Part shown: positions 1,774-40,575 of the stretch, piece by piece
Layout of the letters: each line of letters opens with the position of its first letter
Numbering within the stretch: position 1 is the first letter of the stretch
From: Microcaldota archaeon
Lineage (GTDB): Archaea; Micrarchaeota; Micrarchaeia; Norongarragalinales; UBA8480
DNA length: 46,667 nt
NCBI GenBank assembly: GCA_021812145.1
Contig: JAKAOM010000001.1
Span: 85,898-132,564, forward strand
Reading direction: 5' to 3'
Notes under the pieces: model-generated
The model's database searches: none
The model's input: only the letters and a program-made list of their open reading frames with translations
Told to the model about the DNA's origin: nothing
Position numbers and translations under genes: made by a program

Positions 1774-1894
1774 CGCGGAGGGCGGGATTCGAACCCGCGC
1801 GGCGCGAACGCACCAATAGCTTTCGGCATATTCCTAGTTTAGCAGGCTTGCGGATTTTTATAGTTTACCGCCATGGCCACTAGGCGACCTCCGC
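1774..1894 (-). tRNA. tRNA-Ser(GCT) with two 18-nt introns
   Basis: Acceptor GCGGAGG/CCTCCGC, T-arm GCGGG-TTCGAAT-CCCGC, long variable arm, discriminator G. Removing 1848-1865 (29/30) and 1822-1839 (37/38) gives anticodon arm GTAGC-CTGCTAA-GCTAT and an 85-nt mature tRNA. Confidence 0.88.
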
Positions 1895-6245: not shown

Positions 6246-7904
6246 TCACATTTTTTCAAGCGCATCGATTCCAAGGGTTTCAAGGCATTCCTTTAGCGTT
6301 TCCTCTGTTTTTTTGACTAGCTGAAGCCTGAATTCGCTACCTGTTTTTATTACCGGGCTGGTGGCGTAGAACGTGTTGAAGAGGTGAGCGGTTTTGAGAG
6401 CGTATTCTGCGATTATGTGCGGACTGAGCTCTTTTTCTGCTTGTTTAAGAGTTGGGAGGTAGAATGCTATCTGGCAGGCTAGTCTTTTCTCGTCTTCGTT
6501 TAATTCAAAGGTTTGCTCTGTTGGCGTTTGTTTTGATTCCGCCGCTTTTTTTATTATGCTTGTTATTCTGGCATGGGTGTATTGAAGATATGCGCCTGTG
6601 TCCCCTTCAAAATTGACGCTTTGTTTAGGGTTGAATGAAATGTTTTTTTCGTTCCTTACTCTTAGAACGGTAAATTTAAGCGCTGCAACGCCTACTTTCT
6701 GTGATATTTCGTTTTTTTCCTTTTCTCCATATCTTTTTCCGTTTTTTTCAATTTCTTTTAAAGCTTCCTCTTTGCTTTCATTCAGCATGTCTTCAAGTAA
6801 AAGGGTGTTTCCGCTTCTTGTGGCTAGTGTTTTGCCCTGAAATGTCATGAAACCGTAGCTTACGTGGTTTAGCGTTTTCACGTAGTTCCTTCCAAGCAAT
6901 TCTATTATTTTGAAGAGCTGCTGGAAGTGGGTGTTTTGCCTTGAGTCTGTAACATACACGCTGACGTCGGGGTGGTATTTTTCGTTTTTGTAGTCCGCCC
7001 ATGCAAGGTCTCTTGTTATATACACTGTTGTTCCATTGGATCTCATTAGAATTGTGTTTGGCAGTCCTTCCTTTTCAAGTTTTACTACCACCGCCCCGTC
7101 TTCCAGATTGGTTATTCCTTTTTTTTCGCATTCTTTTGCTATTTTGACTCCGCTTTCTATGAATTGGCTTTCTCCTCTGACGTCATCGAATTTAACGTTC
7201 AGGAGCGAGTACGCTTTTTCGAATATTTTCATTGAGTGATCTGTTATTTTTTTTATTGTTTCCAGGGTTTCAACGTCCCCCTTTTCTATTTTTTCAGTTA
7301 TTTCCTCCACTTTTTTTTTAAGTTCCTCACTTTCCTCCACTTCCTTATTTATTTGAACGTAGGTCTCAAGCAGTTGCCTTTCGTTTTCTATTTCATTCAT
7401 TTTGAGTTTTTTCATTGCTAGTATCATTAGCGCCACTTGCCTTCCACTGTCTCCCGGATAGTTGACGCTGTACGCTTTCCAGCCTGTTTTTTCCATTATC
7501 CTTCTTATGCTATCCCCAAGTATGGTTGATCGAATGTGGCCTACGTGCAGAGGTTTTCCTATGTTTGGCGACGAGAATTCCACTACTGCCGTTTTGCCAT
7601 TCCACTCCCCTTTTTGCTTTTTTTGTGACAGGTTTTTTTCGTGGAATTTCCTTGTAAATTCAAGGTTTAGATAGTTGTTTTCAGCGCTTTTTATTTTGAT
7701 TGATTCGGCTAGCTTTTTGTCTTCAGATAGTTTTTTCACTATCTCGTCTTTTTTTCCCTTTTGAATTGCTTCAAACAGGTGTATTGCCAGATCGCCGCGT
7801 CCTTCTTCCGCTCTTGCCGGCTTGGTTTTCAACCCTTCTTTTTCAAGGATTTGGGTTATTTCTTCAATTGTTTTTTCAGCTTCTGATTGCTGCATTTTCT
7901 TCAC
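6246..7904 (-). CDS. argS: Arginyl-tRNA synthetase
   Basis: EFSSPNIGKPLHVGHIRSTILGDSIRRI (HIGH-like); C-terminal DALRD-type domain. Confidence 0.96.
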   Translation of the reverse strand: MKKMQQSEAEKTIEEITQILEKEGLKTKPARAEEGRGDLAIHLFEAIQKGKKDEIVKKLSEDKKLAESIKIKSAENNYLNLEFTRKFHEKNLSQKKQKGEWNGKTAVVEFSSPNIGKPLHVGHIRSTILGDSIRRIMEKTGWKAYSVNYPGDSGRQVALMILAMKKLKMNEIENERQLLETYVQINKEVEESEELKKKVEEITEKIEKGDVETLETIKKITDHSMKIFEKAYSLLNVKFDDVRGESQFIESGVKIAKECEKKGITNLEDGAVVVKLEKEGLPNTILMRSNGTTVYITRDLAWADYKNEKYHPDVSVYVTDSRQNTHFQQLFKIIELLGRNYVKTLNHVSYGFMTFQGKTLATRSGNTLLLEDMLNESKEEALKEIEKNGKRYGEKEKNEISQKVGVAALKFTVLRVRNEKNISFNPKQSVNFEGDTGAYLQYTHARITSIIKKAAESKQTPTEQTFELNEDEKRLACQIAFYLPTLKQAEKELSPHIIAEYALKTAHLFNTFYATSPVIKTGSEFRLQLVKKTEETLKECLETLGIDALEKM

Positions 7905-10484: not shown

Positions 10485-11363
10485 TTACACTCTCGGCCTT
10501 CTGGTTTTAATAAGATTCAGGAAAACCAGTTGGAAAACTATTAAGAATATTATTATTAGCGGGAATATAATTGACGTTATTGGAACGTTTATTATTGATA
10601 TTATAACTATAAGTATGGTTATTCCAAGGCTTGGAACTATAACTGCCATCATCATGTATATCATCGTCCATGGTGAGAGTTCATGCGCGTATTTTTCTAT
10701 GTCGTCCATTTTGTCTTTTGTTAGCCCGTCTATTGTTGTTTCAAGAGCGGTTCCAACGTCGCTTCCTACTTTTAGCGCGTTGGATATTTGCCATAGAATT
10801 CTTCTTAGCTTGAATGACGGGCTTTGCTTGCTGGCTTCGGATATTGCGTCAAGTTCTGAAACTCCTCCGTTTATTCTGCTTACTATTTTTTTGAATTCCT
10901 CGCTAACCTCCCCGTAGCTTGTTGAAATGCTTATCATGGCGTTGAATAGTGGAACGCCGCTTTTAACTTCAATGTAAAGCTGTCGTGATGCGGGTATTAG
11001 ATTATCCTCTATCAACCTCATTTTTTTGGTGGCCACAAGTTGAGGGTAGTATATTATTGTTGCAAAAGTGGATAGGAATATTATGATTGCGATGAGGGAT
11101 GCTAGAAACAGCATGTTTGTTTCTGAAAGATAGCCTATTCCGACTATAAGCGCGAATAGGAATAAAGCGTTTAGAATTGATGCCGTTCCTGCTATGGCGG
11201 CGTATTCTCTGGCGTCGTACTCGTAATCGGATTGCGCTAACTCATCTTCGAGGCCCGGGAAGAATTCCGAGATGAAGTTTCCAACTCCTTTTATTCTTTT
11301 TGCTATTGCAGCGGTTAGAGGGTAGGGTACTAGAGAGAATGGTATTGTTTTCACTTCAACCAC
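10485..11363 (-). CDS. Second type II secretion F-domain (TadB/TadC-like) membrane protein
   Basis: EDNLIPASRQLYIEVKSGVPLFNAMISIS...ALKVGSDVGTALETTID; multiple TM segments. Confidence 0.85.
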   Translation of the reverse strand: MVEVKTIPFSLVPYPLTAAIAKRIKGVGNFISEFFPGLEDELAQSDYEYDAREYAAIAGTASILNALFLFALIVGIGYLSETNMLFLASLIAIIIFLSTFATIIYYPQLVATKKMRLIEDNLIPASRQLYIEVKSGVPLFNAMISISTSYGEVSEEFKKIVSRINGGVSELDAISEASKQSPSFKLRRILWQISNALKVGSDVGTALETTIDGLTKDKMDDIEKYAHELSPWTMIYMMMAVIVPSLGITILIVIISIINVPITSIIFPLIIIFLIVFQLVFLNLIKTRRPRV

Positions 11364-13384
11364 TCGGGCACTTTATTTTTTGATATTTCATCCATAAGCT
11401 CGCTTCTGTTTTTGTAGTACTCCGCTATCAGCGAGCCTATACTGTTTACTTTGTCTATTTTATGTTCCAGGGCGAAGTCAAGAATTTGCTTTTTCTCGCT
11501 TATGTCTGTTTCTATTTCATTTATCGTCATTCCAGTGTGCATTGTCAGCTCGTCTACGAGTCTTACGAAGTTACCGACTCTTTCAAGTTTGTCATCTCTG
11601 GCGTTCCACTTGTATATCACGTTAAGATTCATTTTATTTTCTTCCGGAGTTATTTCAGCTACCTCGTACGTTCTTCTTATTCCTGTTCTTCTTTGCCTGT
11701 ACTGGACTATTATCAGTTGAAGAGCGCCCAGCACTTCTTCCGGCAGGCTGATTGGAGGGTTTGTCAATCTGTTTTTGACTTGCAGTACCTCGTCTGCGTG
11801 GACTGTTGAGTATACCGAGTGCCCGGTGTGCATTGCCTCAAACAGCACTTCAGCTTCTTCTTTTCTCCTTACTTCTCCTAGAACTATCCTGTCCGGTCTC
11901 ATCCTGAGAGAGTTGACCACTAAATCCAGCATGGTTATCTCCCCCTTGCCTTCTGGGTTGGGCTCTCTTGTCACTAGTGGTATCCAGTGCATGAAATCCG
12001 GAAGTACCAACTCTCTTGTATTGTGCACTACTGTGTTTTCGCATACGAAGTTTTCGTACATTGGAACTGTAAGGTCGTAGACGCTTCCATCGTAAAAGGT
12101 TTTGTTTATTTCCGTTATCTTTGCGGTTTCGGCTTGTGTTTCCCCCTGAATTTTCATCTGTATAGCGCCGTTCATGGAAAGGTTTTCGCTTGTGAGTACT
12201 GCAATGCATATCTCGTCGCCCTTTTCAAGCTCGCCTGCCCTTACAGGGATTAGCGTTCCATCCATTTTGAATACCGAGTGGTCTTCAGTCACGTTTATAG
12301 TTGTTTTTTCTGTTTTTATTTCCACCATGTTTTTTGATATCTTGTGCTTGATGAAGGCGGTTGGCTGGGCTATGACTATCTTTCCGTCTTTGGTGGAGGA
12401 AAATATTTTTATCTCGTCTGTGTTTAGTGCTACCTCTGTTCCGTCTTCAAGAATTGTTTTGTCTTTAGCAAGCTGGCTTTCTACAAGATCGCTTATCTTT
12501 TTCTCGTAGAAAACGTCTTTTTTCTGGAATATTATTTTTTCACTTCCTTTCACGCTGTCCTCTATTGAGACGACTCTGTTGTTTGCTGGCACGAACGGCA
12601 GTATGGCGTTTAGGAAGCTTGTTTTTCCGGATGCGGTTCCCCCTCCCACGAGGATGCTCATTTCGTATTGCATTGATGTCCAAAGCAGCGCGGCCACCTC
12701 GCTGGTTATTGTTTTGTATTCCGGGTTTATGAGGTTGATTATGGTCCAGGGATCTTTGGAAAACTTTCTTATTGTAAGTGAGTTTCCCTTGTTGCTTATG
12801 GGGAAGAGTATTGCGTTGACCCTGCTTCCGTTTAGCAGGTGCGCGTCCATCATTGGCTGCAGGTTTGTCACTTGCTTCCCTATTTTTCTGGCTATTATTG
12901 ACGAGTAGTTGTATATCTGTTCTTCGGAGCTTATTGTTATGTTGGTGGTAAGCCATCCTTGTTTTTTGTGGTATACTTTGACTGGCTCGTGCGAAGAGTT
13001 TATAACCACCTCTTCAAGATTGTCGTCGTTAAGTATTAACTCCAAGTCTCCGAGCCCGGTCATGTCGTTTATTATTTTTCCAACCAGTATTTTTTTCTCT
13101 TCTTCGGAAACTCCAGGTAGTTGCTGTTCTATAAGGGTTGAAGCTCTATCTGCCAGTTTTATTTTTACTTTTTCGTTTTCTCTTGGGTCTAGTATTTCCG
13201 AGGTTTTTATGTCTATGCTTTCTATTATTTTTTCCTTTAGGTGTTCAAGGACTGCTTCTGTTGCTGGTTTTATTTTAACATGCTTCAGGTAGTATTTGTT
13301 TGTGAATTCTTTCTCTTCTTGTGTGATTTCTATTTCAGCCATTACCCCCTCGCTTTCAACCACGTATTTTTCAAGTGTTTTCAT
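11351..13384 (-). CDS. Type II/IV secretion ATPase (TadA/VirB11/GspE superfamily) containing a mini-intein
   Basis: VGGGTASGKTSFLNAIL Walker A; SIED//TREL split by insert; RMRPDRIVLGEVR; STVHAD. Confidence 0.93.
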   Translation of the reverse strand: MKTLEKYVVESEGVMAEIEITQEEKEFTNKYYLKHVKIKPATEAVLEHLKEKIIESIDIKTSEILDPRENEKVKIKLADRASTLIEQQLPGVSEEEKKILVGKIINDMTGLGDLELILNDDNLEEVVINSSHEPVKVYHKKQGWLTTNITISSEEQIYNYSSIIARKIGKQVTNLQPMMDAHLLNGSRVNAILFPISNKGNSLTIRKFSKDPWTIINLINPEYKTITSEVAALLWTSMQYEMSILVGGGTASGKTSFLNAILPFVPANNRVVSIEDSVKGSEKIIFQKKDVFYEKKISDLVESQLAKDKTILEDGTEVALNTDEIKIFSSTKDGKIVIAQPTAFIKHKISKNMVEIKTEKTTINVTEDHSVFKMDGTLIPVRAGELEKGDEICIAVLTSENLSMNGAIQMKIQGETQAETAKITEINKTFYDGSVYDLTVPMYENFVCENTVVHNTRELVLPDFMHWIPLVTREPNPEGKGEITMLDLVVNSLRMRPDRIVLGEVRRKEEAEVLFEAMHTGHSVYSTVHADEVLQVKNRLTNPPISLPEEVLGALQLIIVQYRQRRTGIRRTYEVAEITPEENKMNLNVIYKWNARDDKLERVGNFVRLVDELTMHTGMTINEIETDISEKKQILDFALEHKIDKVNSIGSLIAEYYKNRSELMDEISKNKVPEWLK
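12020..12556 (-). other. Mini-intein (179 aa), no homing endonuclease domain evident
   Basis: Insert between SIED and TREL starts at Ser; block B-like VTEDHSVF; block F/G-like VYDLTVPMYENFVCENTVVHN followed by Thr. Confidence 0.92.
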
Positions 13385-15609: not shown

Positions 15610-15747
15610 GCCGCAGTAGCTCAGCTGGTTAGAGCGCCAGTTTTTCTTGGATTTGCCTTGAAATAGGGCGTGACTCATAAATTCTAACTCAGGATTTGAC
15701 TGGATTGGGCTATCTGGAGGTGGGGGGTTCAACTCCCCCCTGCGGCA
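15610..15747 (+). tRNA. Elongator-type tRNA-Met(CAT) with two 32-nt introns
   Basis: Acceptor GCCGCAG/CTGCGGC; D-arm GCTCAGCTGGTTAGAGC; T-arm GGGGG-TTCAACT-CCCCC. Removing 15641-15672 (30/31) and 15680-15711 (37/38) gives CCAGA-CTCATAA-TCTGG. Confidence 0.9.
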
Positions 15748-17722: not shown

Positions 17723-18010
17723 GAGTGTGAGGGCGGTACCCCGCCTTTTGTTGTACGAAAAACACCGCGTGTTTTTCTTTTGGCAGCATTAATCTAAGCG
17801 GCTTTAAAAAAGCCTTGCGCCATACGGTGGGGCTCGTTTCACTTCGCTCGCGCGTTAAAGCATCGTTTTTGTCATTTGCTGAAAAACGCCGATCGAATGT
17901 CGTTTCTGCTCCCCACCCCTGCCTTAAGCAGGGAAGGTTTTGCCTTCTGTTTGATTTTTGGTGGGCGGAAGTTCCTCCCTATGAAGGGTAAGCTGCCCGC
18001 CTTCACGCTC
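17723..18010 (-). ncRNA. rnpB: Archaeal RNase P RNA
   Basis: On the minus strand: GGGAGGAACTTCCGCCC (CR-I), TTAGATTAATGCTGCC (CR-IV), ACAAAAGGCGGGGTACCGCCC (CR-V); terminal P1-like pairing GAGCGTGA/TCACACTC. Confidence 0.85.
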
Positions 18011-38547: not shown

Positions 38548-38987
38548 GCAAGAAAACAGATAAAACTGCTAAAAATGATAAAGCCAAGTCAAAGGCAAAA
38601 AAAACCGACGTTCTATACGCAAGAGGTAAGAGGAAGGAAAGCATTGCAAGGGTTACCGCGAAGCCGGGCGAAGGCTTGGTTTGGGTGAACGGAGGCCTTT
38701 TGGTAGGCAATGATTCAAGGCTTATCAGTTTGCAGGAGGTTTTTTCACTTGTTCCTGAAGTAAAGCTAAACTTTTTCGCGATTGTTTCAGGCGGCGGAGT
38801 GGAAGGTCAGGGCCAGGCTTTGAAAACAGGTGTGGCGAGAATACTAGCAAAAGTCGGGGGGGAAGAGATAAAGAAAAAATTTATGGATTTCGACAGGTCT
38901 CTTTTAGTTGAAGACGTTAGAAGAGTGGAGCCTAAAAAGTTCAAGGGGCCAAAAGCCAGGGCGAGATTCACCAAGAGTTACAGGTGA
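38544..38987 (+). CDS. rps9: Ribosomal protein uS9
   Basis: YARGKRKESIARVTAKPGEGLVWVNG; C-terminal KGPKARARFTKSYR. Confidence 0.96.
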   Translation: MSKKTDKTAKNDKAKSKAKKTDVLYARGKRKESIARVTAKPGEGLVWVNGGLLVGNDSRLISLQEVFSLVPEVKLNFFAIVSGGGVEGQGQALKTGVARILAKVGGEEIKKKFMDFDRSLLVEDVRRVEPKKFKGPKARARFTKSYR

Positions 38988-39021
38988 TTTGAGTTATGAA
39001 AACAATATTAGGTGTTTTTTC

Positions 39022-39219
39022 ATGCTGATTCCAGTAAGATGCTTCAGTTGCAACAACCCTGTTTCAGAGAAGTGGGGCGAGTTTCAGGAGCGTGTTTCCA
39101 AGGGAGAGGACGCCGGCAGGGTTTTGAACGAGCTCGGAGTTGACAGAATCTGCTGCAGGAGAATGTTCTTGGGCAACGTCGACTTGATTGAGGAAGTCAA
39201 AAGCTACAGACGCTACTAG
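39022..39219 (+). CDS. rpoN: RNA polymerase subunit N (Rpo10)
   Basis: MLIPVRCFSCNNPVSEKW...DRICCRRMFLGNVDLIEEVKSY. The track's longer start (38908) overlaps rps9. Confidence 0.96.
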   Translation: MLIPVRCFSCNNPVSEKWGEFQERVSKGEDAGRVLNELGVDRICCRRMFLGNVDLIEEVKSYRRY

Positions 39220-39238: not shown

Positions 39239-40360
39239 TTATTCTTTTACTGAGTAGATTTTGTTGATGAAGCCGCGTTTGCTTCCTTTATCTTCTCTTT
39301 GCTTTTTTATCAATCCGTCTTTAAGCATTTCCTTCAGCAGGTTGTAGGCTTTTGTTTCGTTCAAACCTATTTCTTCTTCAATTTCTTTTTTAGGCGCGCT
39401 TCCATCTCTAAGCATTTCCATTATTCTATTTTTTATCAATTCATTCTTTGCTTTTTTGGCTTGGATTTTCAGTTTTTTTCTTTCCAGTGACTTGGTCTTT
39501 TTTTGAAGTTCGTAACCCCCATTTTCTATTTCGCTTGTTTTTTCCATTATTTTATTTATTATTTTACCCTTGTTTTTGAGTTTTTTCGTTTGTTTTTCCA
39601 TTTCCCAGAATAGGGCGGGCAGTCCTTTTTCTTCTTGGAGTGCTTTCTCTTTTTTTTGGCTGCTTTTGATTTCGAATTTTTTCTGCATTTCTAGAAGTTT
39701 TTCGCCAACCTCGCTTACTTCGCTTGTTTTTATTCTTCGTTTTTTTATCAGCTCTTTTAGTATTTTGAAGGTGTATGCCGGATCGGTTTGCATTGCTTTT
39801 GCTTTGCTGTTTGTCGCTTCTATTTGATTTTTAAGTTCGGGGAGCTCTTCTACAGCGTAAGGGCTTATTCTTATGAACTGGGTTGGGTTGACTCCTTTTT
39901 CTGAAATTGTTTTTGCGTGGATTATCATTTCGTTGAGTTGGCTTTCATTCAAAATTAACCTCTTCTTGCTTTTGTAGTATTTCGAGTTGTTTTCGATCTT
40001 GCTATTTTCAAGAATAGCGTCAAGTGCGAAGAAGGGGTCTGAGTGTTTTTTGATTGAGTTTGCGAGTTCAACAGCATTTTTGAGTGTTTGAGGGCTTGTT
40101 TTTTTAGCAATTTCTTTTATTATTCTAACCTGCATTTCAATGTTGTGGTCCTGGTTTCTGTGAATTTCAGCTATTTGCGATATTAAGTTTGGTTCAAGCA
40201 TTTCTTCACGGTATTTGCCCTCCCTTCCGACAGTTATTTTTTTGATGTTGTTTATTATTTTTTTATCATTGTTTAAACCAAGGTCCGCTAGTGTTTTTTT
40301 GATTTTATACTCCGCTTCGCTTTCACTAAACCTTTTACTGTTTTCCTCTTTTCTTTCCAT
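39239..40360 (-). CDS. Coiled-coil protein with C-terminal winged-helix-like domain
   Basis: RIMEMLRDGSAPKKEIEEEIGLNETKAYNLLKEMLKDGLIKKQRE resembles a winged HTH; Lys/Glu-rich helices upstream. Confidence 0.6.
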   Translation of the reverse strand: MERKEENSKRFSESEAEYKIKKTLADLGLNNDKKIINNIKKITVGREGKYREEMLEPNLISQIAEIHRNQDHNIEMQVRIIKEIAKKTSPQTLKNAVELANSIKKHSDPFFALDAILENSKIENNSKYYKSKKRLILNESQLNEMIIHAKTISEKGVNPTQFIRISPYAVEELPELKNQIEATNSKAKAMQTDPAYTFKILKELIKKRRIKTSEVSEVGEKLLEMQKKFEIKSSQKKEKALQEEKGLPALFWEMEKQTKKLKNKGKIINKIMEKTSEIENGGYELQKKTKSLERKKLKIQAKKAKNELIKNRIMEMLRDGSAPKKEIEEEIGLNETKAYNLLKEMLKDGLIKKQREDKGSKRGFINKIYSVKE

Positions 40361-40501: not shown

Positions 40502-40575
40502 GGGGTTGTGGGACAACTTGGTCAGCCTATCAGCTTAGGGAGCTGAAGATCCGAGTTCAAATCTCGGCAACCCCA
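40502..40575 (+). tRNA. tRNA-Pro with anticodon AGG, no intron
   Basis: Acceptor GGGGTTG/CAACCCC; anticodon arm TCAGC-TTAGGGA-GCTGA; T-arm CCGAG-TTCAAAT-CTCGG. Confidence 0.92.

What the first reader, a model, noticed from the sequence alone, without database searches (positions are those of the whole stretch)
40528..40545. Second A34 tRNA: tRNA-Pro with anticodon AGG
Sequence: TCAGC-TTAGGGA-GCTGA gives anticodon AGG in an otherwise standard, intron-less tRNA-Pro. Two independent A34 tRNAs in four-codon boxes within 46 kb argue against sequencing error and for a lineage-level decoding change. CTT and CCT codons look common by eye in the window's genes.
Basis: partly seen in the sequence, partly recalled or inferred. 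Interest (0 to 1): 0.7.

Follow-up and report, generated by a model that had tools for sequence, protein, structure and literature searches.

The report
Archaeal proline tRNA with anticodon AGG
A small symbiont-like archaeon and several of its relatives read the proline codons CCU and CCC with a tRNA whose anticodon starts with A, a type that published surveys say archaea essentially lack, and several of them appear to have no enzyme that would convert that A to inosine.

Summary
Window 40502-40575 (+) is a clean, intronless tRNA-Pro with anticodon AGG, in an archaeal MAG (757 kb, 78% complete). It is not a sequencing error: the same gene, 96% identical, lies at the matching place in a sister species whose flanking DNA is only 71-77% identical. 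In the sister genus the syntenic gene beside rpoN is a normal Pro(GGG) with an intron, so A34 is derived. The tRNA is a mosaic: GGG-type body, Pro(UGG)-type anticodon arm. Across 302 genomes of the phylum (Micrarchaeota), intronless Pro(AGG) occurs in 9 genomes, 4 genera, 3 families. One is the complete 952,257-bp chromosome of Mia14, where AGG, UGG and CGG are the only Pro tRNAs. Four A34 genomes, one 94% complete, have no deaminase of the TadA superfamily. Likeliest mechanism: unmodified A34 reading CCU and CCC, as published in vivo work on proline A34 anticodons allows. Sporadic archaeal A34 gains are known, but I found no published Pro(AGG), nor a conserved, recurrent replacement of G34.

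The parts
40502..40575 (+). tRNA-Pro(AGG), intronless, with discriminator A73 at 40575
   Evidence: ARAGORN and Rfam RF00005, 56.6 bits
40530..40546 (+). anticodon arm TCAGC-TTAGGGA-GCTGA; anticodon AGG at 40537-40539; U33 and G37 as in other Pro tRNAs
   Evidence: sequence; identical except position 34 to the anticodon arm of tRNA-Pro(UGG) of the same genome
40464..40477 (+). probable archaeal promoter: BRE-like GAAAGT and TATA-like TTTTTAA, about 25-38 nt upstream of the tRNA
   Evidence: sequence; the block is conserved upstream of the orthologous tRNA in the sister species G017; promoter role inferred
38908..39219 (+). rpoN (RNA polymerase subunit N); the syntenic anchor that also flanks the intron-bearing Pro(GGG) gene of the sister genus
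   Evidence: Pfam PF01194, E 9e-27; rpoN next to tRNA-Pro(GGG) in L061/L062
39239..40360 (-). winged-helix protein gene between rpoN and the tRNA
   Evidence: weak TrmB/MarR match below the Pfam cut-offs

Best explanation
The tRNA is the functional replacement of the standard archaeal tRNA-Pro(GGG). In an ancestor of this genus the intron-bearing Pro(GGG) gene beside rpoN acquired an intronless anticodon arm of the Pro(UGG) type, probably by gene conversion, and position 34 became A. The product is charged with proline as before (G1-C72, A73, G35 and G36 kept). It reads CCU by Watson-Crick pairing and CCC by A34.C wobble, without deamination to inosine, while Pro(UGG) and Pro(CGG) read CCA and CCG. 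[quoted passage not shown] Shown: the gene, its conservation, its orthology to GGG, the absence of GGG where it can be tested, and the lack of a TadA-like protein in most carriers. Inferred: expression, charging, the gene conversion, and the chemical state of A34.
For: Gene and structure. Conserved at 96% in G017 with a shared upstream block while flanking DNA is 71-77% identical. The orthologous locus in G021 and G022 is Pro(GGG) with an intron. Mosaic pattern against G022 GGG: D region 3/21 differences, anticodon arm 7/21; against G021 UGG: D region 7/21, anticodon arm 1/21, which is position 34 itself. Pro set AGG/CGG/UGG in G000 and in the complete chromosome G287, with no GGG by Infernal, ARAGORN or an intron-tolerant scan that found all three positive controls. 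Recurrence in 9 of 302 genomes, 4 genera, 3 families. No PF00383 protein in G246 (94% complete), G289, G097 or G098. Authentic A34 proline anticodons barely discriminate CCU from CCC in E. coli, and the same was reported for a Salmonella mutant tRNA: PMC11066159.
Against: No RNA data exist: expression, charging and the state of A34 were not measured. G000 is 78% complete, so a Pro(GGG) could lie in the missing part; the complete relative argues against this only by analogy. G000 and Mia14 share a deaminase-fold protein whose substrate is inferred, not tested. The A34.C reading rests on experiments in bacteria with other tRNA bodies. CCC is not obviously avoided in G000 or G287.
Confidence: 0.62

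Rival explanations
1. A34 is deaminated to inosine by an archaeal deaminase not recognised as TadA, for example the dCMP-deaminase-like protein of G000 (C5:7879-8256) that has a homologue in Mia14. Inosine then reads CCU, CCC and CCA as in eukaryotes and some bacteria.
For: A PF00383 protein is present in G000 and a 36%-identical homologue in G287. Everywhere A34-to-inosine is known it uses this fold.
Against: The G000 protein's best family and structure matches are ComEB and dCMP deaminases, and it carries the HAE motif and extra Cys pair typical of dCMP deaminases. It is absent from G246 (94% complete), G289 (same genus as G287), G097 and G098, all with A34-Pro. The TadA-resembling proteins of the family sit in GGG genomes and match guanine/guanosine deaminases best.
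Confidence: 0.17
2. The AGG tRNA reads only CCU, and CCC is read by Pro(UGG) through U34 superwobble, so the loss of GGG was tolerated by UGG rather than by A34.
For: Superwobbling is known in reduced genomes (PMC8879553). Pro(UGG) is present in G000 and G287.
Against: Direct tests of proline A34 anticodons show near-equal use of CCU and CCC (PMC11066159). Pro(CGG) is retained, so U34 need not be promiscuous.
Confidence: 0.14
3. The AGG gene is an extra, non-essential or pseudogenised copy and a normal Pro(GGG) does the work.
For: G000 is 78% complete. In the sister genus and in G015 a normal GGG gene exists.
Against: The AGG gene occupies the GGG locus and is conserved at 96% over strong divergence. 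No GGG gene is in the complete Mia14 chromosome, nor in the 757 kb of G000.
Confidence: 0.06
4. Assembly error, contamination or eukaryotic DNA.
For: The genome is a MAG.
Against: The gene is on a 133-kb contig next to archaeal ribosomal and RNA polymerase genes, has an archaeal-type D arm shared with orthologues, and is present in independent assemblies; the same type occurs in the complete Mia14 chromosome.
Confidence: 0.01

Closest known systems
Species-specific A34 tRNA gains in archaea (Leu-AAG Ferroplasma, Val-AAC Methanohalobium, Gly-ACC Natrinema, Arg-ACG Halalkalicoccus and Methanobrevibacter; PMC6000648)
   Same: An archaeal gene predicted to carry an A34 anticodon; where traceable, derived from other anticodons by mutation.
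   Different: Those are sporadic cases among 167 genomes, at least one (Methanobrevibacter Arg-ACG) flagged as atypical in PMC8450103. Here the box is Pro, the gene is conserved in a genus, replaces Pro(GGG), and recurs in three families.
Unmodified A34 tRNA-Thr(AGU) of Mycoplasma and tRNA-Arg(ACG) of yeast mitochondria (as reviewed in PMC11066159)
   Same: A34 in a four-codon box of a reduced genome, apparently without inosine.
   Different: Bacterial or organellar; here archaeal, with UGG and CGG isoacceptors kept.
Inosine-34 tRNA-Pro(IGG) of eukaryotes and expanded I34 sets of some bacteria
   Same: Encoded anticodon AGG replacing GGG.
   Different: Those depend on ADAT2/3 or TadA; no such enzyme was found here.
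Salmonella mutant tRNA-Pro with A34 (Chen et al. 2002, cited in PMC11066159)
   Same: Unmodified A34 in tRNA-Pro reading CCU and CCC.
   Different: A laboratory mutant, not a natural replacement.

Membership tests
tRNA-Pro | Cloverleaf with anticodon NGG, U33, and proline identity bases G35, G36, A73, G1-C72 | tested here: met
   Sequence and covariance score; identity bases from general knowledge of archaeal ProRS
tRNA-Pro | Charged with proline in the cell | not testable with these tools
   Needs RNA or enzyme assay
Archaeal-type decoding (G34, U34, C34 in four-codon boxes) | G34 tRNA reads the U- and C-ending codons of the proline box | tested here: not met
   Pro set is AGG, UGG, CGG in G000 and in complete G287; no GGG. 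Other boxes (Thr, Ala, Val) do meet it
Inosine-34 (A-to-I) tRNA | TadA or ADAT-type deaminase in the same genome | tested here: not met
   No TadA found in G000 or G017 (both incomplete); no PF00383 protein in G246, G289, G097, G098
Inosine-34 (A-to-I) tRNA | Inosine at position 34 | not testable with these tools
   Needs mass spectrometry or tRNA sequencing
   Thr GGU, Ala GGC, Val GAC keep G34; Leu(AAG) calls are intron-placement artefacts by my reading

The most novel reading that the evidence does not exclude
Micrarchaeota have repeatedly replaced G34 by A34 in the proline box. Either they use genuinely unmodified A34 as the only dedicated reader of CCU and CCC, the first natural conserved case in archaea, or they have an undescribed archaeal A34-modifying enzyme. 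Either outcome breaks the rule that archaea have no functional A34 tRNA.
Probability: 0.6. Interest if true: 0.72.

Novelty: new variant of a known kind. Interest (0 to 1): 0.6.

Why it matters
Reviews state that archaea lack all A34 anticodons and A34 deaminases (PMC8007984, PMC11066159). A conserved, recurrent Pro(AGG) that has displaced Pro(GGG), in several carriers without any TadA-fold enzyme, gives a natural test of why unmodified A34 is avoided elsewhere and of the idea that strong first and second codon pairs free the wobble position. Because one carrier, Mia14, has been grown in co-culture (PMC5498576), position 34 can be examined directly.

Tried and rejected
Sequencing error or a chance tRNA: rejected by the sister species and by complete Mia14. 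A second A34 tRNA in the window: the gene at 1774-1894 (-) reads as Ser(GCU) with two introns (GTA^..^GC-CTGCTAA^..^GCTAT) and the one at 15610-15747 as Met(CAU) with two introns (CCAG^..^ACTCATAA^..^TCTGG). Leu(AAG) called by ARAGORN at C26:38554 and 40055: CAGG^16 nt^A-CTTAAGA-TCCTG gives a perfect Leu(UAA) arm. Ser(AGA) called at C3: reads as Gly(UCC) with an intron. Pattern hit in G034: no tRNA. Intronless Pro(GGG) with the matching pattern exists in only 1 of 302 genomes (G162); since the pattern needs a purine at 38 and excludes intron-bearing genes, I draw no strong conclusion. A codon-usage shift due to A34 could not be shown: CCC/(CCC+CCU) is 0.24 in G000, within the range of other boxes.

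Full report
What is there. Window 40502-40575 (+) is a tRNA-Pro with anticodon AGG, found by ARAGORN and Rfam (56.6 bits). The anticodon loop is TTAGGGA (40535-40541) on a perfect five-pair stem; there is no intron. The D stem has an A12.C23 mismatch, which the orthologues share. A BRE/TATA-like block lies about 25-38 nt upstream and is conserved in the sister species.

Where it is. The window lies on a 133-kb contig of a 757-kb archaeal MAG, 77.7% complete. Neighbours are ribosomal protein S13, other ribosomal genes, the RNA polymerase D subunit and rpoN. One relative in the same phylum, G287, has a single contig of 952,257 bp and 39.3% GC. That is exactly the published length, and matches the published GC, of the closed circular chromosome of Mia14, an ARMAN-2-related archaeon (PMC5498576), so the phylum is Micrarchaeota.

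Not an error. The only other same-genus genome held, G017, has the same gene with three differences, none in the anticodon arm. The flanking protein-coding DNA of the two genomes is 71-77% identical, against 96% for the tRNA. This is what selection to keep A34 would give.

Origin. In the sister genus (G021, G022) the tRNA gene next to rpoN is Pro(GGG) with an intron after the anticodon. In the window one winged-helix gene lies between rpoN and the tRNA, and the tRNA shares the GGG-type D arm and T arm. Its anticodon arm, however, equals that of Pro(UGG) except at position 34. Differences to G022 GGG are 3/21 in the D region and 7/21 in the anticodon region; to G021 UGG they are 7/21 and 1/21. 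A gene-conversion-like swap of the anticodon arm, removing the intron, followed by a change at position 34, fits this; it is an inference.

Is GGG really gone? In G000 the Pro tRNAs are AGG, CGG and UGG. I fetched all 757,482 bases and ran an intron-tolerant scan for acceptor stem, T arm and UGGG: no Pro(GGG). The scan found the intron-bearing Pro(GGG) genes of G015, G021 and G022, used as controls. It would miss a gene with an intron inside the acceptor stem, as it misses Pro(UGG) of G000. In Mia14 the full chromosome gives the same answer: AGG, UGG, CGG, no GGG. Other boxes there keep G34, for example Thr, Val, Arg and Gly.

How widespread. A pattern for intronless A34-Pro over 302 Micrarchaeota genomes finds nine true genes, in 4 genera and 3 families: G000 and G017; G097 and G098; G246 and G247; G287, G288 and G289. 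All nine were read as tRNA-Pro(AGG) by ARAGORN. The count is a lower bound, since intron-bearing genes and those with a pyrimidine at 38 are missed. In G289 the AGG gene is almost identical to the CGG gene of the same genome, so it arose from a different isoacceptor than in G000. At least three origins are likely by family, two by sequence; no tree was built.

Deaminase. TadA and ADAT belong to the PF00383 superfamily. G246 (94% complete), G289, G097 and G098 have no PF00383 protein. G247 has a standard cytidine deaminase. G000 has a dCMP-deaminase-like protein, with a 36%-identical homologue in G287; the G288 match was not classified. Proteins nearer to TadA occur in the GGG-bearing family members, but the best solved relatives of the one tested are guanosine and guanine deaminases. 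A34 and TadA are thus not associated.

Decoding. G000 uses CCU 14.7, CCC 4.5, CCA 10.3 and CCG 6.2 per thousand codons; Mia14 uses 12.7, 4.4, 13.1 and 4.7 (from a simple ORF caller). CCC must be read by something. Authentic A34 proline anticodons in E. coli decode CCU and CCC almost equally (PMC11066159), so unmodified A34 suffices in principle. That is my preferred mechanism; inosine by an unknown enzyme and U34 superwobble are the rivals.

Novelty. Surveys report all archaeal ANN anticodons as missing (PMC8007984) or as rare species-specific gains, none for proline (PMC6000648). The Mia14 genome paper was searched for 'tRNA' and 'codon' and nothing on this turned up. I found no report of Pro(AGG) in archaea in the searched library, which omits most subscription papers. 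I rate this a new variant of a known kind.

Limits. There is no RNA evidence. The genome carrying the window is incomplete.

Noticed in passing
G000:C4:9715-9785 (L024/L060), L052 (G017), L053 (G022): tRNA-Pro(UGG) lacks a contiguous 5' acceptor strand; the missing Gs lie about 30-40 nt upstream, so the gene probably has an intron inside the acceptor stem (about position 3/4).
   Followed up: partly
window 15610-15747 (+): tRNA-Met(CAU) apparently with two introns in the anticodon arm (30/31 and 38/39).
   Followed up: partly
window 1774-1894 (-): tRNA-Ser(GCU) apparently with two introns (29/30 and 38/39).
   Followed up: partly
G000:C26:38554-38655 and 40055-40156: Two near-identical Leu(UAA) genes 1.5 kb apart, each with a 16-nt intron at 30/31; automatic tools misread them as Leu(AAG).
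   Followed up: partly
window 11351-13384 (-): Secretion/archaellum-type ATPase (T2SSE) interrupted by an intein (PF14890, E 3e-18).
   Followed up: no
window 17725-18008 (-): Archaeal RNase P RNA gene (RF00373, 96 bits).
   Followed up: no
L032 (G017:C43), about 640-1390: Gene resembling an ISXO2-type transposase (by eye) between the ribosomal cluster and the tRNA-Pro(AGG) gene; similar DNA occurs on G000:C8.
   Followed up: no
L185 (Aenigmatarchaeota UBA10154), near 7237-7265 (-): Interrupted tRNA gene with a possible AGG anticodon loop but an Asp/Glu/Gly-like D arm; identity unresolved.
   Followed up: partly
Micrarchaeota, 302 genomes: Intronless Pro(GGG) fitting the search pattern was found in only one genome (G162); three Pro(GGG) genes read elsewhere all carry an intron after the anticodon, whereas all nine A34 genes are intronless (the pattern only finds intronless ones).
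   Followed up: partly
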